A DNA stretch of 32,470 nucleotides from a virus. Where the stretch lies: the IMG/VR virus record IMGVR_UViG_3300042294_003403, positions 1 through 32,470 of that record; one strand, 5' to 3'. A model generated the notes under the pieces. That model saw only the letters and a list, made by a program, of their open reading frames with translations, did no database searches and was not told where the DNA came from. Below, in pieces: positions 2,576-32,470 of the stretch (positions are counted from its first letter, which is position 1; the number at the start of each line of letters is the position of its first letter). Position numbers and translations under genes: made by a program.

Positions 2576-2577
2576 TA

Positions 2578-2585
2578 TATTTATA
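2578..2585 (+). promoter_or_regulatory. TATTTATA motif before the gp13-like gene
   Basis: The octamer lies in the 14-base gap between the cupin-like gene and the ATG at 2590, ending 4 bases before that ATG. The wider context is TATATTTATAAACA. No ribosome-binding site is present, so the motif occupies the space where one would be. Confidence 0.5.
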
Positions 2586-5534: not shown

Positions 5535-5563
5535 GTCTAAGAATTATATATTAATTAATTTTA

Positions 5564-5577
5564 TATTTATATTTATA
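5564..5577 (+). promoter_or_regulatory. Two overlapping TATTTATA motifs before the first fibre gene
   Basis: Two copies of TATTTATA (5564-5571 and 5570-5577) overlap in the 64-base gap before the ATG at 5599, leaving 21 bases to the start codon. This would fit a promoter with a short leader. The gap is otherwise A/T-rich without a hairpin. Confidence 0.5.
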
Positions 5578-7915: not shown

Positions 7916-7948
7916 ATAACCCAAGAAATAAACCTCTTGGGTTATTAT
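7916..7948 (+). terminator. Hairpin after the 762-aa fibre gene
   Basis: A perfect 11-bp stem (ATAACCCAAGA / TCTTGGGTTAT) encloses an 8-base loop, 28 bases after the stop codon. The 3' flank (TATATTTATA) is A/T-rich but lacks a clean T run, so termination may be partial. Its place between two genes supports the call. Confidence 0.72.
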
Positions 7949-7981
7949 ATTTATATAAACATAAATAAAGTAATATTTATA
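7948..7981 (+). promoter_or_regulatory. Two TATTTATA motifs before the 2217-aa fibre gene
   Basis: TATTTATA occurs at 7948-7955, directly on the 3' side of the hairpin, and again at 7974-7981, ending 4 bases before the ATG at 7986. Pairing a terminator with such motifs suggests that a separate transcript starts here. Confidence 0.5.
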
Positions 7982-14639: not shown

Positions 14640-14647
14640 TATTTATA
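14640..14647 (+). promoter_or_regulatory. TATTTATA motif before the 1662-aa fibre gene
   Basis: The octamer fills the 14-base gap between two fibre genes and ends 6 bases before the ATG at 14654. It begins one base after the preceding stop codon. Confidence 0.48.
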
Positions 14648-14653
14648 TAAAAT

Positions 14654-17600
14654 ATGCCAGACATTATTATAACACCAAGTTCGGGTAAATTAGAATTCAT
14701 TGATAATTCTACACAAACAATTAGACGACATGCGTTTACACTGGATCATAATGATGGCATAAAGCTTGACGCACCATTATCTGCTGCAGCAGTTATAGCT
14801 CCGTTAAATGTTATAAATGTTACAGTCAATAATAGTAATGTAAATTATCCGTTTGTTTTAGCATCTGGTTCTGCGGAAACAGGTACAAAGACATTGATGA
14901 TGGACGGTTCCGGTGGAACTTATAATCCATTCACAAATACTGCAACAATTGACATATCTGGAAATTCTGCTACAACTACATTAGCGTCAAATTCTACAAA
15001 TCTAGGTGGTGTAGCTGCTGCAAGTTATGTTACTTTAACTGGTACACAGACACTTACAAATAAAACAATTACTGGTACATTTACAGGCAATTTAACAGGT
15101 ACAGGTAGTTGGGCTACCAATGCGGTTAATGCTAATACTGCAACAAATTCTACACAATTAAATGGACAATCTGATTCTTATTATACAAATATACCTGCTA
15201 GATTAGGATATACGCCAGTAAATAAAGCTGGTGATACTGTTTCTGGTAATTTAACTGTCAATGGAAATTTTTCGGTTAATGGTTCTTTTACTGCATTTAG
15301 TGCAAGCAATATTTATATTACATCAAGTAATTTGACGGTGACGGATAACATTCTATTAATGAATGCTTTGAGTCCATATCAAAGATATGCTGGTCTTCAG
15401 ATGTATGATAGTGGTAGTAATACATTAAGTCAATTTTTATGGGATGGTGAAGGAGATTATTTTTTCTTGACAGGAAGTAGTGTTAACGGTAAAATTATTA
15501 CTGGTCCTGACGGACAAACAAATTTAAGTTCTAACTATATTCCTAAAGCTACTGCTGGTTATAAATTAGGAAATAGTTTGCTTTATGATAATGGCACTAA
15601 TGTTGGTATAGGAACAACAAGTCCTGCTACAAAGTTAGATGTAGTAGGTGATGTTACTATGCCAGCAATTAAACAAAGTGCAACGCTATATAATGGTACA
15701 GACATCAGCGATGACAATTCAACTAGAACTGTATATTTCAATATTCCTGCCGGTGGATATAGTCCAATAACTTATTTTAAAGTAGCAAGAATAAAAATTA
15801 CTGGAAATTACCAAAATGTTAGTTTGAATGGGTATTTTACAGCTGCTAATTCTGCACTACATGTAGGTTTTGAGAGAAAAGTTGAATTTGACTTTATTGC
15901 TTATGCAGCTACTAATGCTGGCGCTCCTCAAGTAACCTACATTAAAAGAGGTCAAGATACTACAACAGTTTTAGTTTACGCAGTGGCAAATGGTGGTGGT
16001 GCAGGAACAACTTATTATGATGTATATATTAAACATGGTTGGTATAATGATACACACGGAGAGTTAGCTATTAGAGTAGGTTATTCATCAGCAGTTACTG
16101 TTTGGCAATCTGGGTTAGACAGCGGAACTTCTGCGCCTGTTGATACTTTGGTTAATCCAAATTCAAACTATAACTTTGATACAACAGGATTTGTTGGTAT
16201 AGGTACAACAACTCCATCTAGAAAACTTCATGTTTATTCAAGTGGTTTGTCAGATAATACAGTAAATCCTCTTTTATTAATAGATGGAAAATTTACAGCA
16301 GCTGGCGTAGATTCTAATGATATAGTCGGTATAGCTTTTAGAGTAGAAAATAGTGCTGGTGGATCTCAAACAACTACTTGTATAGGATCATCATATCAAG
16401 GCGCAGGTAACGCTTTATTGCTACAACCTGTTTCTGGTAATGTAGGTGTAGGAACAATAAATCCAAGTTTTAAATTAGATATAGGTGCGGCTGGCAATGA
16501 TGTAGTAAGTGTAAGATTGACTCCTGGTTATGAGCGTGTTAGATATTATGGATTTGATTTGTTAGGTTATAACGATGGTAATCTATGGATGATTGGTAAT
16601 AATCCTACAAACACTTTGGTTTTAGGAAAAACTTGGGATTGGGATAATCAAATTGGAATAGCTTATACGCCAGGCACCGTTGGAAATTCTGGAGGTATAT
16701 TACAAATAGGACAAATAAGCAAAAATAATGCTAACTATACGCACGGAATAACAAGGTTGTATACAAATGGTTTAGAAAGAATTACCATAATTGCTAATGG
16801 TAATGTGGGTATATCAACAACACTTCCTACAACGCCATTGCATGTAGTTGGTGTAATTAGTGGTAGTAGTTTTAGTGGTGCAGGTACAGGTTTAACAGGA
16901 ACAGCATCTGGATTAAGTATTGGTGGTAGTGCTGCAACTTGGACGACTGCAAGAACATTAACAATTGGTTCAACTGGTAAATCTGTAAATGGAAGTGCAG
17001 ATGTAAGTTGGTCATTGACTGAACTTGGGGTTGGCAATGGAACTATTACAATTGCTGCTGGAACAGGTGTTGGTGTAGGATCAACCAATACATTTACAAC
17101 AAATCAAAGTGGTGCAACAACCGTAACAATAACAAATACAGGTGTAACATCACTTACAACCAACACAGGATTAAGTTCAAATGTATCTGCAACTGGTGCA
17201 GTAACAATAACCAATACAGGTGTAACCAGTAATGTGGCTGGAACTGGTATTAGTGTTAGTGGTGCAACAGGCGCAGTAACAATTACTAATAGTGGTGTTA
17301 CAAGTGCGGTTGCTGGAACAGGTGTTGGTGTTAGTGGTGCAACTGGTGCGGTAACATTTTCAATTGGTCAAGCAGTAGGAACAGGTAATAGTCCTACATT
17401 TGCTGCGGTAACTACATCTACAGATGGTGCAAATCATATTATGGCAGGAACAACTAATGCTGAAGGTATTAGAATGACACCTGCTAGTTCTACAACTTAT
17501 CCTGTATTTTTAAGAAGCATCAATCCTGGTGTAGGAGAAGCTTCTCCGTGGATTTATAAAGAACAAGCAACCGATTGGGGTATTTGGCATAATAACCCAG

Positions 17601-21911: not shown

Positions 21912-23164
21912 GTGTTATAAGTTCATTAAGCAAAAGAGGACAGTATTCAACTGTTTCAAGAATGTCAGAAGTTCCTGTAACAGAGGGACTTATATTGTAT
22001 TTAGATTCAAGTGACGAAGCTAGTTATGACGGCGGACCAACAACAAATTATTTTAAACCAACAGAAGGAACATTTGATAATAACGGTGCAGGAACATTTC
22101 AAAGACTAAGAAGTGGAAGTTATGGTGGTTATATAATAAAACCAACCGATGTTGTTTATAGATATGATTTAGGCGGAACAGGATGTCATTATCACGGAAA
22201 TTCTGTTCCAACAGCTAGTATTGGAATTGGAGTGACTATATTATTTACTTTTGATTATTTTATCAGCGCCGGAACAGTTTTGGTAAATGATTATTTAGCA
22301 AACATTGAAAAATACAATTCAGCAGGAACTTGGACAGACGGAGTTGGTCTTACAAACGCAGGAAAGACTATTGGTGTTTGGCAATCGGCTACTCTTTCTA
22401 CAACCATAAATTCTGTAGACTATTATGTTAATCCTTATTTATATCCTGGCGGTTGTAGTTCGTCAAGACTTGCTGCGGATGGATTCATCTTATATAGAAA
22501 TCCACAAATACAAGCTTTAAATTATCAATCCCGATTTGTTTATGGACCTAATGGGTCATTTAATACAAGAAACAATGGTAATTTTTGGAGAGATTTGAGT
22601 GGTAGGGGTAATGATTTTACAATACAAGGTAATATTACTTGGAATAAAGACACAGGATTTAGTAATTTTAATGGTAATAGTGTTGCAAATGGTAATAAGA
22701 TTTTTAGAAGTAATTTCCCGCAAAATTTAAAATCAAGTCAAAGTGGTCAAGGATACACAGTTGTAGTAGTTGCTAGAAGCACAGTTTCTGGTGGATGGAG
22801 AAAGTTGATAGGAAATTGGGATGGTGACAATTATATTGATTTATACCAAAATACGACAGGAAATACATGGCATCAAGATGGCAGCGGTGAAACATTATAT
22901 GTAGACGGAGTGCAAGTTGGTCAAGATACATATGTTATGTATAATGCCGGATTTCATTGTTATGCGGCTACAAACTTGAATAATGGAACACTAACAAATC
23001 CAACATTACCGTTAACTATAGGAAATGAACCAAATGGAGCAGCTAATCCTAATGCATATCCATGGGTTGGTGATATTGCTGTAGTTTTGATGTATGAGAG
23101 GGTATTAACTGCGTCAGAAATAAAACAAATAAGCAATTTATATAAAGATAAATACGGATATTAA
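21908..23164 (+). CDS. LamG/concanavalin-like adhesin, 418 aa
   Basis: A probable paralogue of the preceding gene product. The N-terminus has EGLILYLDSSDEASYDGGPTTNYF; the middle has WRDLSGRGNDFTIQGNITWN, the usual opening of a LamG-like domain. Then come GYTVVVVARSTVSGGWRKLIGNWDGDNYIDLY, LYVDGVQVGQ and the ending WVGDIAVVLMYERVLTASEIKQISNLYKDKYG. The start ATG overlaps the stop of the preceding gene by 4 bases (ATGA), which makes a translationally coupled trio with 19654 and 20643. The two LamG-like proteins are divergent, suggesting different glycan targets. Binding partners cannot be read from sequence. Confidence 0.82.
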   Translation: MSVISSLSKRGQYSTVSRMSEVPVTEGLILYLDSSDEASYDGGPTTNYFKPTEGTFDNNGAGTFQRLRSGSYGGYIIKPTDVVYRYDLGGTGCHYHGNSVPTASIGIGVTILFTFDYFISAGTVLVNDYLANIEKYNSAGTWTDGVGLTNAGKTIGVWQSATLSTTINSVDYYVNPYLYPGGCSSSRLAADGFILYRNPQIQALNYQSRFVYGPNGSFNTRNNGNFWRDLSGRGNDFTIQGNITWNKDTGFSNFNGNSVANGNKIFRSNFPQNLKSSQSGQGYTVVVVARSTVSGGWRKLIGNWDGDNYIDLYQNTTGNTWHQDGSGETLYVDGVQVGQDTYVMYNAGFHCYAATNLNNGTLTNPTLPLTIGNEPNGAANPNAYPWVGDIAVVLMYERVLTASEIKQISNLYKDKYGY

Positions 23165-23168
23165 TATA

Positions 23169-23176
23169 TATTTATA
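23169..23176 (+). promoter_or_regulatory. TATTTATA motif before the 1710-aa fibre gene
   Basis: The octamer lies in the 17-base gap after the LamG gene and ends 5 bases before the ATG at 23182 (context ATATATTTATAACC). Confidence 0.48.
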
Positions 23177-23181
23177 ACCAT

Positions 23182-26100
23182 ATGGCAGACTTAAAGACAA
23201 CAAATATTTTCGGTGACGCTTATATTAATAATAAAGTGGGTATTGCTACAAACGCACCTGCTACAAGATTACAAATAGGTCAGCTATCCCCAACCGCAGC
23301 TACAGAAGGTATCCAATTCGGTGATGATCCAGGTACAAGAGTTTATAGAAGTGCCGCAGGAATTCTTACTTATAGCGGAAGCATTGAAATAAGCGCAAAT
23401 GCGTCCTTAAATGGTAATTATGGTAATTGGACCGGAGAAATCAATAAAATACAATGGCATTCAAACAATTTATATCTTGTAAATAGAGGTGGTGGAAGTT
23501 GGTTGTTTAGAAATTCTAGTGGAGCTAATGTATTTGAAGTTGCTGCAAATGGTACAACTTCTGCTGCGGCTAATATTAACGCAGGAACTTATGTATATGC
23601 AGGCACATATCTTCAAACAAATGGAAATTTAATTTATCCATCGGGTCAAACTGCTACACAAAGATTAGAAGTTGGTAATGCTTCTGGAAATGCATGGGTT
23701 ACAGGTATATCTATTGCTCAAGGTGGAAATGTTACAGTTTATAATAATTTAACTGTAAGTAATGCTGCTACCGTCACTAATGATTTAACGGTCAATGGTA
23801 ATACTTACTTGGGTAACGCAAATAATGATACAGTATATGTAAATGATACTATTAGAATTGGTGCAACTGATAGTGGTGACGCATCATTATTTTTCGGTGA
23901 AGGCAGTGTTGCTGGTAGTGATTATGGTGCTAGATGGTATTGGGATAGCGGTTATACATTTACTTGGTATACAAGAAATGCTGGAACCGATACTGCTTTA
24001 TTTGATTATGTAACAAATGATACAACTTATTTAAATTGGCGTAGACATTTCCATATGCAAAATAAGGAAATTAATTATAACGCACAAATTCATTTTAACG
24101 CTGGAACAAGATTTGTTGGAAATAATACAAGTTATCTAAATTTTAGATCAGATTCAGCAGGCGCAGGTGGAATTCTTGTTCAAGATGGAAATGCTACTAC
24201 AAAAGGATATACTGGTTATTGGGATTCTGCTGGTGGAGGTATATTAAATAATAGCGGAAATTGGGCAGTAAGATATAATTTCGGAAGTGCAAATTCTGGT
24301 GGAACATTATACGGTGCATGGACAGTAAATGGAAACATATCTGCTACCAATTTATCTGGAACAAATACAGGTGATCAAACTATTGGAAACGGAACAATTA
24401 CAATTGCTGCAGGAACTGGTATAGGTGTTGGAACAACCAATACATTTACCATGAACCAAAGTGGTGCTACAACGGTAACAATAACAAATAGCGGTGTAAC
24501 AAGCAATGTTGCTGGAACTGGTATTAGTGTAAGTGGTGCGACTGGTGCGGTAACTATTACAAATAGTTCACCGAATGCAACTCATACCGGTGATGTAACA
24601 GGAGCAACCGCATTAACAATTGCAAATGATGCAGTAACTACTGTTAAAATACTAAATGCAAATGTTACCAATGCAAAATTAGCAAACAGTTCACTTACAA
24701 TTGGTTCAACTGCAATTTCTTTGGGTGCAACCGCAACAACAATTGCAGGTTTAACTAGTGTAACATCCACAACATTTGTTGGTGCTTTAACTGGAAATGC
24801 AACTACGGCCACTGCATTGACATCAATGAATATATCACAGTTTACAAATAACAGTGGTTATTTAACAAGTGCAGTAACAAGTTTAGCTGGAACAACAAAT
24901 AGAATAACAGTTAGTGGTGCAACAGGTGCAGTAACTTTAAATTTACCACAAGATATTCATACAGGCGCATCCCCAACATTTGCAGGTCTAAGTCTTACAA
25001 GTGTATCTACAACAGGCGCAACAATTACAAATTTGACGGGTGCATATCAAAATACAACTGTATATGACAGTCCAAGAACACAATCTGCTACACCAAGTAG
25101 AGGTATAAGAGCACCAGCATCTTCAATACAATTTACAGACAGTTACGCAATCGCACCATTTTATACATATAGATCCACAGGCGATTGGCCAGTTCCATAT
25201 GGTATTGGTTGGGGAACAGGTGGTGAATCATCTGGTATTTTTCAAAGATATGCTTCAAATGGTTCTTCATTTGGTGATATGATTTTCTATACAGGAAATG
25301 ACGGCAGTGGAGCATTTTCATTTAGAAGACACGTTTGGGAATCAACTACTTATTTTGCTGCTGGTTCTAATCACTTAAATGATGAATTATTTAGAATTGA
25401 TTGGGCAGGTAAAGCAACCGCAACATCATTTGCATTACCTGGCGGATTTACAATTACTGATCCTGGCAGTGGGTATGCTGCATTTAGTAATTGGGTATTA
25501 TTAGGCACTACAGGATTTTATAGCGCAACAAATAGCGCACATTTATTACCAAATCCAGGCAGCTATGGTTCTTGGAAAATTACTGGAACCAGAGGTGGTT
25601 GGTATGGTATTGAATTTGAATCTGGTGTAAGTTTGATGGCAAATAGTAATCAAGTTGGATTTCATAGAAATGGATATGGATGGCAAATGTGGTGGTCTGC
25701 TGGAACAGGATATGTTCACAAAGGAGATCCAGGTGGTGGAACTCAAGCTACAATTTTAGATTCAAGCAATTATACTAGTTATACACCAGGACTTGGAACC
25801 AATAATACATTGACCGGAATAAACACGATTAATAATACAAGCAATACAGTAATAAATACTTTATCGGGTAATTTAGGGTTGACAATGTTTCAAGCAACTG
25901 CCGGAACAGATGCTTATATGACTTTTCATATTGGTAGTGATTATGCTGCATATTTTGGGCTTGGTGGTGCTGAAAATGATTTAGTATATGGTGGTTGGAG
26001 TGTTGGAAATGTTAGATATAGAATATTACATTCTGGAAATGCTACATATGCATGGAACATGAATCAGTATGTAAGAACTACAGATACTTGTTCATTTGCA

Positions 26101-28314
26101 GGTTTGACGGTTTCAAATACAATAAATGGAAGTGTTACAGGTAATGCTGGTGGAAGTTCTACTTCTTGTACAGGCAATGCAACTACAGCTACAACATTAC
26201 AAACCGGAAGAACTATTAACGGAACAAGTTTCAATGGCAGTGCTGCTATAACAACCGCAAATTGGGGAACAGCTAGAACACTTACAATTGGATCAACAGG
26301 AAAATCTGTAGACGGTAGTGCAGCTATTACCTGGTCTTTGGCAGAAATTGGTGCTGCAGCAACCAATCAAACGATGTTTGTTGGAACAACTTCGGTTGCT
26401 ATAAATAGAGCATCTGCGGCTCAAACTTTGACAGGCGTAAATATTGACGGTAACGCAGCTAGCGCTACTTATGCAAGAAGATTAGATGATGCATCAAGAT
26501 CATCATTTACAGTAGGCGGAAACAAAGATAACTATTATCCTGTATTCTTTGCTATCGGTGCAGGATCAACTGCTCTACAGTATTCCGAATTCGTAATTGA
26601 AAGAGGTGGATATGATGATCCTGGTTATACATTTGCTGGTGGCAATACGTTTAGTACACTGAACATTCGTTTTTCTTGTAAAGCAAGCGGTTGGGGGTTT
26701 GGCGCTACATATGAAAATGTTGAAATGCACGGATATACAACTCAACTGGTTGCTAATTGGCAACAGATGTCAGAACAAAGTATATTAATTGTTTGGTTGA
26801 GAGGAGCAACAATTTATAATTTTTGGAATGTTGTTGGAAATACGACCCTTGTCAATGGAAACAGTGGAGGAACATCGTTAACATTAGTCAATGCGCCATA
26901 TTATAATTATACTTATGCACCAACTACAACTGTACAAACTAAAGCTCTATACGGTAAATATATTAATAGCAGCACTGGAACATCGGGAATTTATGTTGCT
27001 GGAAATGTTTTAGCAGAAGGACTTTTTAGTGGGCCAGGAACAGGGTTGACAGGTACTGCAGCAGGATTAAGTATTGGTGGCAATGCTGGTACTGCTACAA
27101 TATTACAAACCGCAAGAAATATTAACGGAACAAGTTTCGATGGTAGTGCTGCTATAACAACTGCAAATTGGGGAACAGCTAGAACACTTACAATCGGTTC
27201 AACAGGAAAATCTGTTGACGGTAGTACAGCTATTACTTGGAGTTTGGCAGAAATTGGTGCAGCCGCAACCAATCAAACAATGTTTATTGGAACAACTTCG
27301 GTTGCTATAAATAGAGCATCAACAAGTCAAACTTTAACGGGTGTAAGTATTGATGGTAACGCAGCTACTGCTACAAGTGCTACTTCTGCAACAAGTGCAT
27401 CGTTTGCAACTACAGCAGCTACTGCAACAAATGTTAGTATTGCAAATGGCAGTGTAGCATTAGCAAAAATTGAAAACATTACTGCATATACAATTTTAGG
27501 TAATAGTAATGCTAGTTCTGCTGCTACTCCTGCTGCTTTATCGGTTGCAACAGTGGCTACAATGTTAAGTGGTCAAACCATGAACATTAATGGTAGTTCT
27601 ACATCTATTAGTGGATTTGGAAATCCTGCCACTACTGCTACTGCAAATACAATTGCATATAGAGATGCTAACGGAGATTTATCCACTAGATATTTCTTTG
27701 GAAGTTATCAAAATTCAAGTGACGATATTAACACGGGTAATATTAGCCATATAATGGCAAAATTTGGTGATAATTATCATCGTAGTGCCACTGCCGCAAA
27801 AGTAGCAGCATTTATTACTGGTCAAACAATGAACATTGCTGGTAGTTCCACAAGCTGTACTGGCAATTCTGCTACTGCTACAAATGCTACTACTGCTGGA
27901 GGTTTGGCGGTTCAATCCGGAACAAATTATGACGCAAATAAAATAGTAAGAACAGATGGTAATGGTTATATCTTGGCAGGATGGATAAACACAATTTCTG
28001 GTAATAATGGAACCACAGCTATTGACAGAGTATATGCCTCTAATGATGGTTATATTAGATATTATACCCCTGCAAATTTTAGAACTGTTTTGGATGTACC
28101 AACAAGAAACGGAAGCGGAGTTACAAATTTTGGTATTAACACTGCTCCGTCAAACAGATTACATATTAATGGTGATGGAACAAATCCTGCAATTCGTGTA
28201 GATAACGGAGCAGTAGTATTAGCAGCAAGTGCTGCATCAAACAGTAAAACATTTTATGGTTGGTTACCAATATCAATTGCCGGAACAACCAAGTGGATTC
28301 AAATGTATAATTAA
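23182..28314 (+). CDS. Long tail fibre / adhesin protein, 1710 aa
   Basis: The N-terminus MADLKTTNIFGDAYINNKVGIATNAPATRLQIG places a VGIGTTSP-like repeat directly after a short anchor; a matching repeat (FGINTAPSNRLHINGDG) lies close to the C-terminus. Between them are fibre repeats (TTATALTSMNISQFTNNSGYLTS; GDVTGATALTIANDAV), a large unique block (about 615-950) with many aromatic residues that may be a receptor-contact domain, and two copies of a 90-residue unit (INGTSF(N/D)GSAAITTANWGTARTLTIGSTGKSVDGS...INRAS). The end (NSKTFYGWLPISIAGTTKWIQMYN) is a short terminal strand motif. There is no enzyme motif and no signal peptide. The protein is thought to be a receptor-binding fibre or part of a branched fibre with the other long proteins. 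Confidence 0.86.
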   Translation: MADLKTTNIFGDAYINNKVGIATNAPATRLQIGQLSPTAATEGIQFGDDPGTRVYRSAAGILTYSGSIEISANASLNGNYGNWTGEINKIQWHSNNLYLVNRGGGSWLFRNSSGANVFEVAANGTTSAAANINAGTYVYAGTYLQTNGNLIYPSGQTATQRLEVGNASGNAWVTGISIAQGGNVTVYNNLTVSNAATVTNDLTVNGNTYLGNANNDTVYVNDTIRIGATDSGDASLFFGEGSVAGSDYGARWYWDSGYTFTWYTRNAGTDTALFDYVTNDTTYLNWRRHFHMQNKEINYNAQIHFNAGTRFVGNNTSYLNFRSDSAGAGGILVQDGNATTKGYTGYWDSAGGGILNNSGNWAVRYNFGSANSGGTLYGAWTVNGNISATNLSGTNTGDQTIGNGTITIAAGTGIGVGTTNTFTMNQSGATTVTITNSGVTSNVAGTGISVSGATGAVTITNSSPNATHTGDVTGATALTIANDAVTTVKILNANVTNAKLANSSLTIGSTAISLGATATTIAGLTSVTSTTFVGALTGNATTATALTSMNISQFTNNSGYLTSAVTSLAGTTNRITVSGATGAVTLNLPQDIHTGASPTFAGLSLTSVSTTGATITNLTGAYQNTTVYDSPRTQSATPSRGIRAPASSIQFTDSYAIAPFYTYRSTGDWPVPYGIGWGTGGESSGIFQRYASNGSSFGDMIFYTGNDGSGAFSFRRHVWESTTYFAAGSNHLNDELFRIDWAGKATATSFALPGGFTITDPGSGYAAFSNWVLLGTTGFYSATNSAHLLPNPGSYGSWKITGTRGGWYGIEFESGVSLMANSNQVGFHRNGYGWQMWWSAGTGYVHKGDPGGGTQATILDSSNYTSYTPGLGTNNTLTGINTINNTSNTVINTLSGNLGLTMFQATAGTDAYMTFHIGSDYAAYFGLGGAENDLVYGGWSVGNVRYRILHSGNATYAWNMNQYVRTTDTCSFAGLTVSNTINGSVTGNAGGSSTSCTGNATTATTLQTGRTINGTSFNGSAAITTANWGTARTLTIGSTGKSVDGSAAITWSLAEIGAAATNQTMFVGTTSVAINRASAAQTLTGVNIDGNAASATYARRLDDASRSSFTVGGNKDNYYPVFFAIGAGSTALQYSEFVIERGGYDDPGYTFAGGNTFSTLNIRFSCKASGWGFGATYENVEMHGYTTQLVANWQQMSEQSILIVWLRGATIYNFWNVVGNTTLVNGNSGGTSLTLVNAPYYNYTYAPTTTVQTKALYGKYINSSTGTSGIYVAGNVLAEGLFSGPGTGLTGTAAGLSIGGNAGTATILQTARNINGTSFDGSAAITTANWGTARTLTIGSTGKSVDGSTAITWSLAEIGAAATNQTMFIGTTSVAINRASTSQTLTGVSIDGNAATATSATSATSASFATTAATATNVSIANGSVALAKIENITAYTILGNSNASSAATPAALSVATVATMLSGQTMNINGSSTSISGFGNPATTATANTIAYRDANGDLSTRYFFGSYQNSSDDINTGNISHIMAKFGDNYHRSATAAKVAAFITGQTMNIAGSSTSCTGNSATATNATTAGGLAVQSGTNYDANKIVRTDGNGYILAGWINTISGNNGTTAIDRVYASNDGYIRYYTPANFRTVLDVPTRNGSGVTNFGINTAPSNRLHINGDGTNPAIRVDNGAVVLAASAASNSKTFYGWLPISIAGTTKWIQMYN
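24382..24565 (+). repeat. Fibre segment shared with the 1662-aa fibre
   Basis: Codes for GNGTITIAAGTGIGVGTTN, TFTMNQSGATTVTITNSG and VAGTGISVSGATGAVTITN. Its counterpart is at about 17035-17290 in the 14654 gene, with high identity at the DNA level over short blocks. Confidence 0.72.
26191..26463 (+). repeat. 90-residue fibre repeat, copy 1
   Basis: Codes for INGTSFNGSAAITTANWGTA, RTLTIGSTGKSVDGSAAITW, SLAEIGAAATNQTMFVGTTS and VAINRASAAQTLTGVNIDGN. The second copy is at about 27098-27369. They share long identical DNA runs such as around GCAAATTGGGGAACAGCTAG. Confidence 0.85.
27098..27369 (+). repeat. 90-residue fibre repeat, copy 2
   Basis: Colinear with copy 1 at 26191-26463. Most differences are silent or conservative. 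After the repeat the sequence runs into an Ala/Thr/Ser-rich linker (ATATSATSATSASFATTAAT). Confidence 0.85.
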
Positions 28315-28325
28315 AATAACAATTT

Positions 28326-28598
28326 ATGGACAATATAGAATATACGATATGTAGATATGAACTTTATCCACCAGATTTTCATACTGCCATAGCAGTTGGA
28401 TTTTTGGTAAAAGATATATCAACAGGAAATACCGGAACAATGGAAAAGTTAATACCATTGGAAGATTCAAACGGTAAAACACAAAGTGAAGTTTGTAACT
28501 TGGCATTTTCAAGATTAACAACGGAAAATCAAAATTTACTTGACTACTTTCAAAAGAAAAGAGATACCGTAGTAGGAAGTGTATTTATTCCTAGTTAA
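28326..28598 (+). CDS. Small phage protein of unknown function, 90 aa
   Basis: Begins 11 bases after the last long fibre gene and ends 5 bases before the glycosyltransferase gene, so it very likely shares their mRNA. The sequence has alternating hydrophobic strands (FHTAIAVGFLVKDI, EKLIPLEDSNGKTQSEVC) and a helical C-terminal part (LAFSRLTTENQNLLDYFQKKRD). I do not recognise a family. A small fibre-assembly or accessory protein would fit the location, but nothing in the sequence proves it. The start ATG has no Shine-Dalgarno sequence. Confidence 0.72.
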   Translation: MDNIEYTICRYELYPPDFHTAIAVGFLVKDISTGNTGTMEKLIPLEDSNGKTQSEVCNLAFSRLTTENQNLLDYFQKKRDTVVGSVFIPS

Positions 28599-28603
28599 TT
28601 ACA

Positions 28604-29629
28604 ATGTCAAATAGGTTATTGCTTACCAGCGAATACAATTTCGTATCTGGTTATAATATTTTGTTATCAACGATTTTAGAAGAATCGGTGAAGAAAAATG
28701 TCATTGTTATACCCAAATATTATAACAAACCATCAGAAAAGTTTAAATCTTATTTTGATAATATTCCAAACAGAGACGGCACAGAAAAAGAATTATTGTT
28801 ATTTCCATCTTTCAATTATCCCGATATTCAACATCATTTATTACACATTCTAAATGGAAAAAATAAAACATATTTTAGTATGTGGGAAGCAAGTAGGATT
28901 GGAGATTTTTACATTGATAAAATAAATCTATTTGATAGAGTTATAGTTCCAAACAAATGGAATAAACAAACATTTGAAAATCAAGGATGTACCAGTGAAA
29001 TTTCAGTAGTAAATCTGGGTGTAGATACAAAAGTATTCAATTATACAGAACCAAATAATAATGATATTTTTACATTTGCAACAGGCAACGATGATCCAAG
29101 AAAACGCTTACCAGAAGTAATAAAATGCTTTATTAAAGCATTTCCAAATGAAAAAGATGTTCGTCTCTCTATTAAAGTATCTACACAAACAACACAAAAA
29201 TTTACAGATAATAGAATCATATTCAATACACAAAATTTTACTAAACAACAATTAAAAAATTGGTATTGTTCAAATGATGTATTCGTTTCTGCTGTAAGCG
29301 CAGAAGGATGGGGATTAATGCAACACGAAAGTATGGCATGCGGTAGACCTGTAATTGTTGCAAATTATGGTGGATTAAAAGAATTTGTTACACTTGAAAA
29401 TAGTTTTTGTCTAAGACATATAGAAGTAGATGCAACAGGATTTTGGGAATTTCCTGGTGCAAAATGGTCTAGATACGATGAAGAACATATGATTGAAACA
29501 ATGAGATATTGTTACAATAATAGAGATAAAGTAAAAGAAAAAGGTATAATTGCAAGCAAAGATGCTTGCAAATTATCCAATGAATTGTTTATTCAAACAC
29601 TATTGAAAACACTATCAATAGACTTTTAA
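28604..29629 (+). CDS. Glycosyltransferase, GT-B fold, GT4/GT1-like
   Basis: 341 aa. Transfers a sugar from a nucleotide donor to an acceptor. The C-terminal Rossmann half is clear: DIFTFATGNDDPRKRLPEVIKCF (the usual 'G...kRK....i.af' opening), FTKQQLKNWYCSNDVFVSAVSAEGWGLMQHESMACGRPVIV and YGGLKEFV. The EX7E motif is E234-GWGLMQH-E242, the donor-phosphate and ribose-binding signature of retaining GT4 enzymes. The N-terminal acceptor half is divergent and contains TYFSMWEASRIGD and RVIVPNKWNKQTFENQG. Its end overlaps the end of the minus-strand glycosyltransferase by 15 bases. The target may be virion proteins, phage DNA or a host glycan; adjacency to Ser/Thr/Asn-rich fibre genes favours virion glycosylation, as inference. 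Confidence 0.88.
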   Translation: MSNRLLLTSEYNFVSGYNILLSTILEESVKKNVIVIPKYYNKPSEKFKSYFDNIPNRDGTEKELLLFPSFNYPDIQHHLLHILNGKNKTYFSMWEASRIGDFYIDKINLFDRVIVPNKWNKQTFENQGCTSEISVVNLGVDTKVFNYTEPNNNDIFTFATGNDDPRKRLPEVIKCFIKAFPNEKDVRLSIKVSTQTTQKFTDNRIIFNTQNFTKQQLKNWYCSNDVFVSAVSAEGWGLMQHESMACGRPVIVANYGGLKEFVTLENSFCLRHIEVDATGFWEFPGAKWSRYDEEHMIETMRYCYNNRDKVKEKGIIASKDACKLSNELFIQTLLKTLSIDF

Positions 29630-30271
29630 TTTTTCATGTCCCACAACAACATCTGTATCAATAAATACTTTATAACCCAATTTTGTTATTTCTCTACACC
29701 ACGCAACATCTTCCATAGTAAAGTCTTTTGAACCTCTAATATTAACAAATTCTGGTTTAAACCAAGGATATTTCATGCTTTCAAATACACCTCGTTTAAC
29801 CAACATAAATCCAAATCCTGTATAAACTACGGGGAATTTTTTGTATTTGCTTTTAAAATCATTCAACACTTTATCATCCATAAATTGGAAATTGCCATTT
29901 TGTTGGAAATAATCTTCATCCCAATAAGGAACAGTTGCATAATGAGTACCACCATCCATTTTGTATACACCACTAACAATATCTTCTTTATGATCTAATA
30001 GTTGTTGAAATTGTTTTGGTGTGAAGATAATATCACTATCTATCCACATCATATAATCATAATCCAACTTATTACCAAATGGTTTTTGATTTTCACCAGC
30101 TAATATATTACCACCCAAACACATATTACGAGCGTAATAAATGTTACAACTATACTTTTGAGAGTAAATAACGCTATGTCCTTTGTTATAACAATATCCA
30201 AGTAGATTTGTCCAACATTGTAAAAACTGTCCGCTAAATTCTCTGCCGGGTAAACAAAACAAAATTTTCAT
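29615..30271 (-). CDS. Glycosyltransferase-like protein, GT-A fold with DxD
   Basis: 218 aa, the only minus-strand gene in the window. The N-terminus MKILFCLPGREFSGQFLQCW opens a Rossmann-like fold; Y46ARNM leads to the core motif YDYMMWIDSDIIF with D78-x-D80, the metal/nucleotide-sugar binding DxD of GT-A enzymes. Further conserved segments are HKEDIVSGVYK, VVYTGFGFMLVKRGVFE, E187DVAWC (a catalytic-acid-type 'ED') and DTDVVVGH212, which together match phage and bacterial GT2-type domains of about 220-250 aa. The gene has its own upstream region, shared divergently with 30343, and is likely transcribed separately from the fibre mRNA. Its acceptor is unknown. It could work with the neighbouring GT-B enzyme. 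Confidence 0.85.
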   Translation of the reverse strand: MKILFCLPGREFSGQFLQCWTNLLGYCYNKGHSVIYSQKYSCNIYYARNMCLGGNILAGENQKPFGNKLDYDYMMWIDSDIIFTPKQFQQLLDHKEDIVSGVYKMDGGTHYATVPYWDEDYFQQNGNFQFMDDKVLNDFKSKYKKFPVVYTGFGFMLVKRGVFESMKYPWFKPEFVNIRGSKDFTMEDVAWCREITKLGYKVFIDTDVVVGHEKLKVY

Positions 30272-30287
30272 AAAATATAATAACTAA

Positions 30288-30299
30288 AATTGTACAATT
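30288..30299. promoter_or_regulatory. 12-bp palindrome in the divergent intergenic region
   Basis: AATTGTACAATT is a perfect palindrome placed 16 bases from the minus-strand start (30271) and 43 bases from the plus-strand start (30343). It could be an operator for a dimeric regulator of one or both genes. The role is inferred from position only. Confidence 0.35.
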
Positions 30300-30327
30300 A
30301 CACATATATATCTATGTTACAACCTAG

Positions 30328-30333
30328 AAAGGA
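30328..30333 (+). promoter_or_regulatory. Shine-Dalgarno site AAAGGA of the 70-aa gene
   Basis: AAAGGA stands 9 bases before the ATG at 30343. It is the clearest ribosome-binding site in the window; nearly all other genes have only A/T-rich sequence there. Confidence 0.7.
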
Positions 30334-30342
30334 TATTATAAT

Positions 30343-30555
30343 ATGGAAAATCAACTATCAAGATTCAGTGTTACAGAACTAAAGGCTTTGGTTTATGACG
30401 AATTGGCAAAGTCTGAACAAGCTCAAGCAAATATTCGTATTCTTAATCAAGAACTACGAAATAGACTTCAACCAGCACAAGGTGGAGTAACTAATCCAGA
30501 TGGAAGTCAACCAACCGTTACTTCTGCTGATTTCTCAGGTGCTCCTGATGCTTAA
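30343..30555 (+). CDS. Small coiled-coil phage protein, 70 aa
   Basis: The first two thirds (SVTELKALVYDELAKSEQAQANIRILNQELRNRL) form a predicted amphipathic helix or coiled coil; the tail is Gly/Pro/Thr-rich and probably unstructured. It has a good Shine-Dalgarno site and richer codon use (CGT, AAC, ACC) than the fibre genes, suggesting efficient expression. It is followed 3 bases later by another small coiled-coil gene. No family is recognised with confidence; a scaffolding or accessory virion role is a guess. Confidence 0.75.
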   Translation: MENQLSRFSVTELKALVYDELAKSEQAQANIRILNQELRNRLQPAQGGVTNPDGSQPTVTSADFSGAPDA

Positions 30556-30558
30556 TTT

Positions 30559-30837
30559 ATGTCAGAACCAATTAAATTTTCTCAAGAAGAACTAGATGGT
30601 TTGGGTAAAATCCAATCCAAATACCAAGAAAATACTTTCCGATTTGGACAGTTGTATCTGGATAAATTGTCTTTGGATGAAAAGTTCAAACAACTAACAG
30701 AAGCAGAAGCAAGTTTGAAAAATAACTTCTTGGAAATTCAAAAAGAAGAAGAAACTTGGTTAAATAGTATCACTGCAAAGTATGGTGAAGGATCATTATC
30801 GTTGAAAGACGGTACCTTTATTCCAACAAAAAAGTGA
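30559..30837 (+). CDS. Small coiled-coil phage protein, 92 aa
   Basis: The sequence IKFSQEELDGLGKIQSKYQENTFRFGQLYLDKLSLDEKFKQLTEAEASLKNNFLEIQKEEETWLNSI has long heptad-like spacing of Leu/Ile/Phe and should form a coiled coil. It ends with the segment KYGEGSLSLKDGTFIP. Small proteins with a 'F(T/S)xEEL..L..(I/L)Q..Y......GQL.LDKL' start and a 'YGxGSLxxxxGxFxP' end recur, to my recollection, in marine myoviruses without known function. It follows the 70-aa gene by 3 bases and is followed by a strong terminator, so the two make a short operon. Confidence 0.78.
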   Translation: MSEPIKFSQEELDGLGKIQSKYQENTFRFGQLYLDKLSLDEKFKQLTEAEASLKNNFLEIQKEEETWLNSITAKYGEGSLSLKDGTFIPTKK

Positions 30838-30858
30838 TATAACAAACAAAATTCAAAC

Positions 30859-30890
30859 AACCCACATAATTAATTTTATGTGGGTTTTTT
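30859..30890 (+). terminator. Intrinsic terminator after the two small coiled-coil genes
   Basis: A perfect 11-bp stem (AACCCACATAA / TTATGTGGGTT) with a TTAATT loop is followed by a T run. It begins 21 bases after the stop codon at 30837. It is the only structure seen in the 131-base gap before the next gene, apart from the TATTTATA motif. Confidence 0.9.
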
Positions 30891-30940
30891 ATTGTATATA
30901 TATAATTAAACATTTTAGGATATAATCTATAGAACTTTTA

Positions 30941-30948
30941 TATTTATA
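30941..30948 (+). promoter_or_regulatory. TATTTATA motif before the last gene
   Basis: The octamer sits between the terminator at 30859-30890 and the ATG at 30969, 20 bases before that ATG. Directly after a terminator, it is in the position of a promoter. Confidence 0.52.
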
Positions 30949-30968
30949 TCTAGCAAATATATTTTCTT

Positions 30969-32470
30969 ATGAACATGGATCAATTTATTGTAAGACCAGG
31001 CCAAAAACCTGTTGAAGAAAAAACACAGGTTATTAATGTACATAGAACTGTAAAAGGTTTCTATAAAGCATCTATCATGGAACCAGATGCAAGCGGTAAT
31101 ATTAATGAAGCATTTTCAACTGGTTGGAAACCAAACACCATTCTAAATAGTGGATTGGACAAAATTGCTTATATGCCATGGGCACAAACATTCCAATTTT
31201 GTTTGATTGGTGACTATCCATATACTGGTGCTGATCCTGCTACTGCATCGTATGATGAAACCATGTTAAAGAGACCAAAGAGAATACATTCATTTTATTT
31301 GCCTGGTCAAGGAAATTGTGGACATGTAATATCAGGAAGTACGGTAAGATTGTTCAGAACATTTGATTTTTATAAAGAAATAGACAATGTTACATATACC
31401 GAAGTAGGATTTAAAGAAACTCCTGCAGCAAATACATTGTTTAGTAAAATTCGTTTTGATCCAACAATGAGTTTACATGCAGGTCAATTTATGCGTGTTT
31501 CATACGAACTTCGTGTAAATTTAAATCCTGCTACTGCAAGTGCAGGTGGTATTACTCCAAGTCCATTTCCATCATTTACTGGATGGACAACAGGTTCATT
31601 GGATAAAGAAGCAATTCAAAAAATAGGTTTGTGTGGTATTGATAGTGGTAGTGGATTGGCAGTTCCAATTGATGAAGGTGGATTTTGCAATGAACCATTT
31701 GCTCCAGGTCAATTAAGTTTTGGTCCTGCATTTGGATTCGTAAATAGATATTATAATGGAAGTAATGTTAATTATTATCCATCAGGTTCAACAACATATG
31801 AACCAAATCCGTTTAAAGCAATTGGACCACTTCAAGAATTTGATGTAGGTTATAGTAATATTTATGCTATGTTGGATTATTCAATCTCAGCAAGCAATGT
31901 AATTTCCGGCGGTAAATATAGCGGTAGTTTTGTTGTACCCGATACAAGTAACTTCTTACCAAGAAATTATTTTACTACTGATTATTTAAGAGCCGCCGCT
32001 ACAGTTGTTTATGCTGGTGTTTATAATTCTTCAAGTTTTAAAAGCGTTGACGGCGGATCTGGAAGATATAGTAATATAAATTTTGAGGCTGCATCAGGAT
32101 ACATAGAAGGAAAAACTGCTTTGAGAGTGAGTGAAAGTATAAGATTCTATAATCTTGATAATTTATGGACTCCGTATTGTAAAATGCAAACTTATACATC
32201 AATTGGCAATACAGGATCATTGCCAATTAATAATACAAATTTAATCAACGAATATTTTTATGATACTTTAATGCAAACAAGTGGAAGTTGGTCGTATCCA
32301 TCATACCCATCATCATTGGCAGTACCCGGTGGAAATGGAACAGCATCCGCATTTGAACCTGACAGTTCAATTTTAAGTGGAAGATCCGGATCATTTAACA
32401 ATGTAAAAAATTCAAAAATTCCTGCTAAATATCCTTATTGGGATGATTGGAATCCGTTTACACCAACAGG
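30969..32470 (+). CDS. Large virion-type structural protein (3' partial)
   Basis: An open frame of 500 codons runs off the right edge with no stop codon. It begins MNMDQFIVRPGQKPVEEK; a second ATG two codons later is an alternative start, and neither has a clear Shine-Dalgarno site. The segment KGFYKASIMEPDASGNINEAFSTGWKPNTILNSGLDKIAYMPWA resembles the 'WxxNxIxxxGLD' pattern found near the N-terminus of several phage virion proteins, where a short strand is followed by a fixed Gly-Leu-Asp turn. Later parts are rich in Ser, Gly, Tyr and Asn, as in other structural proteins here. A tail, baseplate or fibre-related role is likely. The exact function is not recognised, and the C-terminal part is outside the window. 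Confidence 0.82.
   Translation, partial: MNMDQFIVRPGQKPVEEKTQVINVHRTVKGFYKASIMEPDASGNINEAFSTGWKPNTILNSGLDKIAYMPWAQTFQFCLIGDYPYTGADPATASYDETMLKRPKRIHSFYLPGQGNCGHVISGSTVRLFRTFDFYKEIDNVTYTEVGFKETPAANTLFSKIRFDPTMSLHAGQFMRVSYELRVNLNPATASAGGITPSPFPSFTGWTTGSLDKEAIQKIGLCGIDSGSGLAVPIDEGGFCNEPFAPGQLSFGPAFGFVNRYYNGSNVNYYPSGSTTYEPNPFKAIGPLQEFDVGYSNIYAMLDYSISASNVISGGKYSGSFVVPDTSNFLPRNYFTTDYLRAAATVVYAGVYNSSSFKSVDGGSGRYSNINFEAASGYIEGKTALRVSESIRFYNLDNLWTPYCKMQTYTSIGNTGSLPINNTNLINEYFYDTLMQTSGSWSYPSYPSSLAVPGGNGTASAFEPDSSILSGRSGSFNNVKNSKIPAKYPYWDDWNPFTPT

What the first reader, a model, noticed from the sequence alone, without database searches (positions are those of the whole stretch)
28604..30271. Two convergent glycosyltransferase genes overlapping by 15 bases next to the fibre locus
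A GT-B enzyme (EX7E at 234-242) and a GT-A enzyme (DxD at 78-80) face each other tail to tail, and their coding ends overlap at 29615-29629. They may glycosylate the Ser/Thr/Asn-rich fibres or capsid, or change the host surface to block superinfection. The opposite orientation of the second suggests separate timing and possible antisense interference.
Basis: partly seen in the sequence, partly recalled or inferred. Interest (0 to 1): 0.5.

Follow-up and report, generated by a model that had tools for sequence, protein, structure and literature searches.

The report
Sugar-transfer enzymes linked to phage tail fibres
A large aquatic phage carries two sugar-transferring enzymes beside its tail-fibre gene; relatives in phages and in some bacteria suggest that at least one of them works on fibre proteins, while the small overlap between the two genes looks like the edge of a swappable gene block.

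Summary
In detail: a GT-B gene (28604-29629, +) and a GT-A gene (29615-30271, -) converge and overlap by 15 nt; both motifs are in place and both genes are under purifying selection.

The overlap is not a conserved device. In relatives it is 15 or 18 nt, a gap, or formed with other genes. DNA similarity to five relatives without intact GTB begins at 29622-29630 in four: the overlap is a cassette seam. The exchanged block is fibre C-terminus, g14 (90 aa) and GTB; sister phages have a tip-like gene and a tail-assembly chaperone there.

GTA (PHROG 1574, 'unknown function') has a confident GT-A fold close to STIV A197. Chromosomal relatives in Elusimicrobiota and the Fibrobacterota group lie within 2 kb of a fibre-like gene in 9 of 12 loci; the other three are cut by contig ends or incomplete.

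Best reading: cytosolic enzymes that glycosylate fibres, GTA generally, GTB for one fibre type. Acceptor, sugar and timing are inferred; host-surface modification is the main rival. GTs in fibre regions are known; this is a new variant.

The parts
23182..28314 (+). g13, 1710-aa tail fibre; its last ~50-150 residues belong to the exchangeable block
   Evidence: phrog_21722 long tail fibre distal subunit 5e-22, phrog_26292 tail fibre 4e-13; DNA shared with three GTB-carrying relatives starts at 27869, 27883 and 28156
23168..23176 (+). ATATTTATA motif before the fibre gene, candidate late-transcription signal
   Evidence: 9 sites, all on + strand, 2.8 expected over both strands; TATTTATA within 60 nt of 7 of 17 + genes
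28326..28598 (+). g14, 90-aa protein of unknown function, precedes GTB in the window clade
   Evidence: homologues before GTB in L002, L082-L084, L087, L019, L009/L116, L011/L115, L088, L117, L118; present without GTB in L186; not detected in the remaining distant GTB loci L119-L179
28604..29629 (+). GTB, GT-B-type glycosyltransferase, 341 aa
   Evidence: Pfam PF13692 8e-10, PF00534 1e-9; phrog_2170 5e-27; PDB profile best hit 3oy2 B736L 8e-10
29303..29329 (+). EX7E motif of GTB (E234-E242)
   Evidence: both Glu invariant in 9 of 9 homologues aligned
29615..29629 (.). 15-nt tail-to-tail overlap; right-hand boundary of the exchanged cassette
   Evidence: DNA similarity to relatives without intact GTB begins at 29630 (L003, L006), 29624 (L007), 29622 (L010); at 29423 inside GTB in L025
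29615..30271 (-). GTA, GT-A-fold glycosyltransferase, 218 aa, PHROG 1574
   Evidence: phrog_1574 9e-59; model pLDDT 95.5; STIV A197 2c0n VIA Z 17.3, rmsd 2.3, 161 aligned
30032..30040 (-). DSD (DxD) motif of GTA, residues 78-80
   Evidence: D78 and D80 invariant in 57 of 57
29708..29713 (-). ED motif of GTA, residues 187-188; D188 aligns with A197 Asp151
   Evidence: profile alignment (residue number counted by me along the printed chain); D188 57 of 57
29636..29638 (-). C-terminal His212 of GTA, GT-A metal-ligand position (role recalled)
   Evidence: 57 of 57; lost in L186
30272..30342 (.). 71-nt divergent region between GTA and g17, similar in close relatives
30343..30555 (+). g17, 70 aa, part of the backbone kept with GTA
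   Evidence: homologues beside GTA in most clade loci, not in L011/L012
30559..30837 (+). g18, 92 aa, part of the backbone kept with GTA
   Evidence: only weak PHROG/Pfam matches
30859..30886 (.). terminator-like 11-bp stem after g18
   Evidence: scored on both strands

Best explanation
Both genes encode soluble glycosyltransferases that act in the cytosol of the infected cell, and the most likely acceptors are tail-fibre proteins. GTA is the general fibre-linked enzyme: it stays with the g17-g18 side whichever fibre tip is next to it, and in some bacteria it stands beside a fibre-like gene. GTB belongs to one exchangeable fibre-tip block (fibre C-terminus, g14, GTB), in the slot where sister phages keep a tip-like gene and a tail-assembly chaperone. 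GTA would place or extend a sugar on the fibre from a metal-bound nucleotide sugar; GTB would add another for that fibre type. The 15-nt overlap is the seam where the exchangeable block meets the fixed, oppositely oriented GTA. Shown: genes, families, GTA's predicted fold, motifs, selection, block boundaries, linkage. Inferred: acceptor, sugar, order of action, timing.
For: GTA fold and motifs. Nearest solved sequence relatives are virus-encoded: GTA profile to STIV A197, an essential enzyme of a virus with a glycosylated capsid protein; GTB profile to chlorovirus B736L. Exchange block and its seam; chaperone in the same slot of L003 and L010, the same 150-aa gene and a tip-like ORF in L006 and L007; GTB scar behind a different fibre in L025. 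g14 directly before GTB in the window-clade loci where that side is visible and in distant L117 and L118. L118: fibre, g14, GTB, three GT- or methyltransferase-like genes, antisense GTA. Bacteria: fibre-like ORF within 2 kb of GTA in 7 of 7 loci at 50-56% identity (5 within 50 nt; L195's GTA is interrupted), against 1 of the other 22 loci of that search; follow-up 2 of 5 new places, both of them the complete genes with two flanks. One sampled locus of the wider GTB family (L136) lies beside virion/amidase-like and tail-fibre PHROG matches; Arthrobacter phage Kitkat's GT lies between tail terminator and tail assembly chaperone genes. L012's contig also encodes a GDP-mannose dehydratase and several GTs. 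No hydrophobic segment in either protein.
Against: GTA's context is not uniform: in many marine phages it follows uvsX/uvsY or lies near terminase, HNH or RNA-ligase genes; only 20 of 130 GTA-bearing loci (with duplicates) have a GIGTxxP-type ORF within 3 kb. Of the three remaining bacterial places, two are cut at a contig end with no fibre-like ORF on the side held, and one partial copy has none in 6 kb. GTB is absent or broken in L003, L006, L007, L010, L025 and L186, so it is dispensable. g14 occurs without GTB in L186 and was not detected in the remaining distant GTB loci L119-L179; in L117 g14-GTB does not follow a fibre. 35 of 41 phage records with a GTB match are Streptomyces phages; in the one viewed, Faust, the two GTs lie between a hydrolase and a ribonucleotide reductase gene. 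GTs in fibre regions have been read as host O-chain modifiers (PMC7029224 passages). The GTB model is weak (mean pLDDT 63, motif region under 50). B736L's acceptor is itself doubtful (PMC9614988 passage). No glycan has been measured.
Confidence: 0.5

Rival explanations
1. The enzymes modify the host's surface polysaccharide from the cytosol (LPS core or O-chain precursor) so that other phages, or the progeny, no longer adsorb to the dying cell; they sit near the fibre because receptor choice and receptor masking are selected together.
For: Published reading of GTs in the fibre-containing hypervariable region of pelagimyophages (PMC7029224 passages) and of jumbo-phage GT clusters (PMC7824862 passages). 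Co-exchange of GTB with the fibre tip fits receptor-matched masking. Soluble GTs can act on core or lipid-linked precursors (recalled).
Against: No lipid-carrier or flippase partner matched in the window ORFs scanned (g8 and g9 not scanned); no hydrophobic segment in GTA or GTB. Chromosomal GTA genes beside fibre-like genes in bacteria are not explained by superinfection exclusion.
Confidence: 0.25
2. GTA acts on capsid or baseplate proteins rather than fibres, with GTB a separate passenger.
For: STIV A197 precedent; GTA lies a few small genes upstream of gp25/gp6 baseplate genes in Kyanoviridae S-T4 and ACG-2014f and in phage Sf-CH8.
Against: Bacterial GTA genes stand beside fibre-like genes where I saw, by eye, no capsid or baseplate gene.
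Confidence: 0.12
3. DNA hypermodification: the pair glycosylates modified bases of phage DNA against restriction.
For: T4-like phages are the classic case (recalled); GTA follows uvsX/uvsY in some marine phages; three GTA-bearing records outside the clade, among them S-TIM5, have a PF00303 gene.
Against: PF00303 (thymidylate synthase family, which includes T4-type hydroxymethylases, recalled) was found in 0 of the 6 clade records L003, L006, L009, L012, L019 and L025 and in 3 of all 14 records; the clade records may be fragments. No T4-type DNA glucosyltransferase among the Pfam hits. Location in the virion/fibre module.
Confidence: 0.07
4. The convergent overlap is a regulatory device: antisense transcription or collision tunes the two genes against each other.
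For: GTA is the only minus-strand ORF over 150 aa in the window and lacks the TATTTATA motif there; GTB lies in the fibre gene's direction.
Against: Overlap of 15, 15, 15, 18, 18 and 18 nt in six GTB loci, gaps of 12 and 44 in two, overlaps of 4-14 nt with other genes in L003, L006, L007, L088 and L186, gaps in L009, L010 and L025. The seam is where recombination joins blocks.
Confidence: 0.04

Closest known systems
STIV A197 (PDB 2c0n), archaeal-virus GT-A glycosyltransferase
   Same: Single GT-A domain of ~200 aa, virus-encoded, DxD and catalytic-base Asp aligned; VIA Z 17.3 over 161 residues, 20% identity
   Different: A profile match only, not a single-sequence match; A197 is linked by its authors to the capsid protein, GTA here to fibres
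Lysyl hydroxylase LH3 accessory domain, COLGALT1, mimivirus R699, yeast Mnn9
   Same: GT-A folds scoring Z 14.8-17.5; LH3 and A197 are tied
   Different: 10-18% identity; the LH3 and R699 stretches matched begin at residues 296 and 253, which I take to be the second, accessory domain (inference from ranges and PMC11838735 passages); a shared fold is no proof of function
Chlorovirus NY-2A B736L (PDB 3oy2), GT-B
   Same: Best PDB sequence match of the GTB profile, 8e-10; virus-encoded
   Different: Algal virus enzyme; acceptor unsettled (PMC9614988 passage)
Glycosyltransferases in the fibre hypervariable region of pelagimyophages
   Same: GT genes beside tail fibres in T4-like phages (PMC7029224 passages)
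   Different: Read there as host O-chain modifiers; the fixed GTA / exchangeable GTB block was not in the passages seen
Mycobacteriophage capsid and tail-tube glycosylation (Freeman et al. 2023)
   Same: Phage virion proteins that carry glycans
   Different: Paper not held; known here through a citing passage (PMC12619734) and recall; capsid and tail tube, not fibre

Membership tests
GT-B / GT4-like glycosyltransferase (GTB) | Sequence match above curated cut-off | tested here: met
   PF13692 39.5 bits (cut-off 27), PF00534 38.6 (26.4)
GT-B / GT4-like glycosyltransferase (GTB) | EX7E conserved | tested here: met
   9 of 9 aligned
GT-B / GT4-like glycosyltransferase (GTB) | Two-Rossmann GT-B fold | tested here: inconclusive
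   Best Foldseek hits are glycosyltransferases I recall as GT-B, but mean pLDDT is 63 and residues 230-291 are under 50
GT-A glycosyltransferase (GTA) | GT-A fold | tested here: met
   pLDDT 95.5; best matches LH3 and A197, Z 17.5 and 17.3
GT-A glycosyltransferase (GTA) | DxD, ED base and C-terminal His (pattern recalled) | tested here: met
   D78, D80, D188, H212 in 57 of 57; E187 56 of 57
GT-A glycosyltransferase (GTA) | Transfer of a sugar | not testable with these tools
   no assay
PHROG 1574 | Full-length profile match | tested here: met
   9.4e-59, residues 2-217
Seroconversion operon gtrABC | Adjacent flippase and bactoprenol-GT membrane genes (recalled) | tested here: not met
   No such family among the window ORFs scanned (g8 and g9 not scanned); of 19 ORFs only g4 has a strongly hydrophobic segment. 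The window is a fragment.
T4-type DNA glucosyltransferase | Match to T4 alpha- or beta-glucosyltransferase families | tested here: inconclusive
   None among Pfam hits up to E 1; presence of those models in the library not checked
T4-type DNA glucosyltransferase | Hydroxymethyl-pyrimidine synthesis gene (PF00303 family) in the genome | tested here: inconclusive
   0 of 6 clade records, all possibly fragments; 3 of 14 records in all
Virion glycosylation system | Glycan on a virion protein | not testable with these tools
   needs mass spectrometry

The most novel reading that the evidence does not exclude
GTA is a fibre-dedicated glycosyltransferase that serves two worlds: phage tail fibres and free-standing surface-fibre loci (fibre, sometimes an outer-membrane-like protein, GTA) on chromosomes of Elusimicrobiota and the Fibrobacterota group. 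In the T4-like phages the fibre tip brings its own second enzyme (g14-GTB) in place of a tip-plus-chaperone module, so that receptor specificity is changed by swapping glycosylation as well as protein tips.
Probability: 0.28. Interest if true: 0.72.

Novelty: new variant of a known kind. Interest (0 to 1): 0.5.

Why it matters
PHROG 1574, filed as unknown, becomes a predicted glycosyltransferase with a testable acceptor; GTA relatives occur in 104 phage records here. If fibres are glycosylated, predicting host range from fibre protein sequence alone would miss part of the receptor-binding surface, and the bacterial fibre-GTA loci would offer a second way to find the acceptor. The case also shows that a striking convergent overlap can be a simple recombination seam.

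Tried and rejected
Antisense regulation through the overlap: rejected, because the overlap varies and re-forms with other genes.

Collagen-type hydroxylysine glycosylation, suggested by the LH3/COLGALT1/R699 folds: a 2OG-Fe(II) oxygenase family (PF13640) was found in 2 of 18 records, neither of the window clade; runs of 8 or more GXY triplets in 1 ORF of the loci then held, from the 735-kb phage. Not pursued; a GT(S/K)-rich repeat in the L118 fibre was seen by eye and the pattern was not run on it.

Glycosylation sequon counts in fibres were not interpretable. The sigma-70 scan gave fewer sites than shuffles, 31 against 46. Shine-Dalgarno check: 4 of 18 starts have a short purine match; host left open. 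Nearest capsid proteins are from Flavobacterium phages, a 484-kb uncultured phage and a Microcystis phage, 51-53%, so a Bacteroidota host is only a guess.

Single-sequence PDB search with GTA gave only hydrogenase chains, best E 0.8, taken as chance. A search of five bacterial genomes for further GTA copies found only the copies already known.

Literature: 10 searches, seen as listings. No title or abstract start in them describes this gene pair, on glycosylated tails and phage protein glycosylation, showed 20 of 26 papers, none about a fibre glycosyltransferase as far as titles tell; one search showed 8 of 24. Most subscription papers are not held.

The tree joins the six bacterial genes put in (with viral L017) at 100/96, near but not inside the window clade; several long branches make the deep order unsure, and my fibre labels in it were set by hand and not tested.

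I lowered the main confidence from 0.52 to 0.50 for this.

Full report
What is there. The window is a 32,470-base virus record, the structural part of a T4-like phage: a major capsid protein of phrog_138, nearest to the Gp23-type protein of Flavobacterium phages immuto at 53%, then large structural genes, a 1710-aa tail fibre, g14, GTB, GTA in reverse, two small genes and another tail-fibre gene (phrog_4176). Both genes are conserved and under purifying selection, though many dS values are near saturation.

What the enzymes are. GTB is a GT-B-type enzyme: Pfam GT1 families above cut-off and phrog_2170; its profile's best solved relative is chlorovirus B736L. Its model is poor, so the fold rests on sequence. 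GTA is not named by Pfam or PHROGs, but a 57-row alignment gave a confident model (pLDDT 95.5). It matches GT-A enzymes: the LH3 accessory-domain stretch (Z 17.5) and STIV A197 (Z 17.3, rmsd 2.3, 161 residues) are tied, then Mnn9, R699 and COLGALT1. The GTA profile finds A197 by sequence too (3.8e-5), with D188 on A197's Asp151. For A197, reviews say that D151E delays replication, that knock-out is lethal, and that the virus's capsid protein is glycosylated (PMC10551542 passages; PMC4187194 passages). D78, D80, D188 and H212 are invariant in 57 of 57 homologues aligned.

The overlap is a seam. In eight loci where GTB ends next to GTA, six overlap (15, 15, 15, 18, 18, 18 nt) and two have gaps (44, 12). 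With other neighbours GTA overlaps by 4 nt (L003, L006, L007, L088) or 14 nt (L186), or is separated by 7-102 nt (L009, L010, L025) (16 junctions listed; L012 left out as the same type as L011, and L083, L084 and L087 as the same type as L082). BLASTN of window 23000-31000 against eight relatives shows why. Three with GTB share DNA from 27869, 27883 and 28156, inside the end of the fibre gene, through to about 30800-30900. Five without intact GTB share DNA on the GTA side only from 29630, 29630, 29624, 29622 and, in L025, 29423; L003 also shares short fibre stretches further left. L025 keeps only a C-terminal remnant of GTB behind a different fibre. So everything from the fibre's distal end to the GTA stop is exchanged as a block, and GTA-g17-g18 is the fixed side.

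What fills the slot. L003 and L010 have a Phage_tail_APC chaperone beside an ORF that looks like a fibre tip (no Pfam match; L003's has a weak tail-fibre PHROG match, 0.001). L006 and L007 have the same 150-aa gene next to GTA and a tip-like ORF but were not scanned. L009 has a TnpB-type transposase, a sulfotransferase and two further ORFs that look like glycosyltransferases by eye, without a Pfam match, one of them a GTA-profile match, with g14-GTB beyond them. L186 has fibre-g14 and no GTB, and its GTA has lost the C-terminal His. g14 lies directly before GTB in the window, L002, L082-L084, L087, L019, L011/L115, L088, L009/L116 and in the distant L117 and L118; L004, L005 and L089 are cut off on that side. 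The remaining distant GTB loci (L119-L179) showed no g14. In the clade loci followed to the fibre end, and in L118 and L186, the fibre finishes in a short C-terminus that looks alike by eye; in L117 the gene before g14 is not a fibre.

Where else the families occur. A profile search with GTB gave 77 viral loci. In the one member of the large distant group that I scanned, L136, the GT precedes a protein with amidase and virion-structural PHROG matches, and a tail-fibre PHROG follows two genes on; others share the layout by gene size. Among annotated phages 41 records match GTB, 35 of them Streptomyces phages: Kitkat's GT lies in the tail genes, Faust's two GTs do not. GTA relatives occur in 104 phage records, mostly cyanophages, best identity 46%; one search gave 79 viral loci (80 stretches kept of 86). 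Among 56 representatives under 90% identity, the commonest neighbours of 90-900 aa within three genes are g18-like (12 loci), phrog_7802-like (12), 5'-3' deoxyribonucleotidase-like (9), a phrog_967 tail-fibre connector (8), GTB (7), UvsX (6), UvsY (6) and an unnamed 285-aa protein (6). Context is therefore mixed, and this counts against one acceptor for the whole family. A GIGTxxP-type ORF lies within 3 kb of GTA in 20 of 130 loci, duplicates included; 29 of 1579 ORFs of 150 aa or more in all loci then held have the motif.

The bacterial test. All seven with 50-56% identity (five Elusimicrobiota, one Fibrobacteres, one Raymondbacteria; two genomes give two loci each; L195's GTA is interrupted) have a GIGTxxP-motif ORF within 2 kb, five of them within 50 nt. 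Of the other 22 loci only L204, an 89%-identical fragment, has one. The five such ORFs scanned (L190-L193, L195) match tail-fibre PHROG 9942. Flanking genes look chromosomal by eye. As a check I searched 294 and 167 genomes of those phyla, the known ones included: five new places. Two complete genes with both flanks have the fibre-like ORF at 137 and 780 nt; two lie at contig ends and show none on the side held; one partial, apparently frame-shifted copy has none in 6 kb. In L189, L195 and L234 a protein that looks outer-membrane-like by eye stands between fibre and GTA. Loci of one clade are not independent, so I give counts and no probability.

Mechanism and rivals. Taken together, fibre glycosylation is the best-supported reading: GTA general, GTB tied to one fibre type. 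Host-surface modification remains serious, since published work reads GTs in T4-like fibre regions that way (PMC7029224 passages; PMC7824862 passages; PMC10202952 passages name both DNA protection and superinfection for freshwater phage GTs). DNA modification has little support. Timing: TATTTATA precedes 7 of 17 plus-strand genes and is absent within 150 nt upstream of GTA in the window and in 11 of 13 relatives, which fits a different transcription class but proves none.

Novelty. GTs near phage fibres, and virion glycosylation, are known. New here, as far as the listings of ten searches of the open library show, are the fixed-GTA/exchangeable-GTB architecture, the reading of PHROG 1574 as an A197-like GT-A enzyme, and its pairing with fibre-like genes on bacterial chromosomes.

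Noticed in passing
L018:3811-4392, L020:4361-4942, L021:5414-5992, L022:5415-5996, L052:4165-4746: A second, shorter GTA copy lies directly upstream of, and overlaps, the intact GTA; its DxD reads SNK or SNQ and the ED and C-terminal GH are lost. L020 and L052 copies look identical. This looks like a conserved catalytically dead partner.
   Followed up: partly
window 2577-2585, 5563-5577, 7947-7981, 14639-14647, 15309-15317, 23168-23176, 30940-30948: ATATTTATA occurs 9 times, all on the + strand, against 2.8 expected on both; 8 of 9 start 13-39 nt before a gene start. A candidate late promoter; its core is the reverse complement of the T4 late element (recalled).
   Followed up: partly
L009:6659-10617: TnpB-type transposase, sulfotransferase and further GT-like genes between GTA and g14-GTB next to the fibre.
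   Followed up: partly
L108:990-20000 and L110:18045-19208 (contig of L012): A phage GT island (GT61, GT2, GT1-type, nucleotidyltransferase-like, methyltransferase) and a GDP-mannose 4,6-dehydratase.
   Followed up: partly
L189, L195, L234: Bacterial loci with fibre-like gene, an outer-membrane-like protein (by eye), then GTA; may be a surface-fibre system.
   Followed up: partly
L041:6001-6650: GTA reading frame split in two in a relative of L009; real decay or assembly error not decided.
   Followed up: no
L008:5158-5823: A prepilin-like N-terminus (by eye) is encoded beside a GTA 68% identical to the window's.
   Followed up: no
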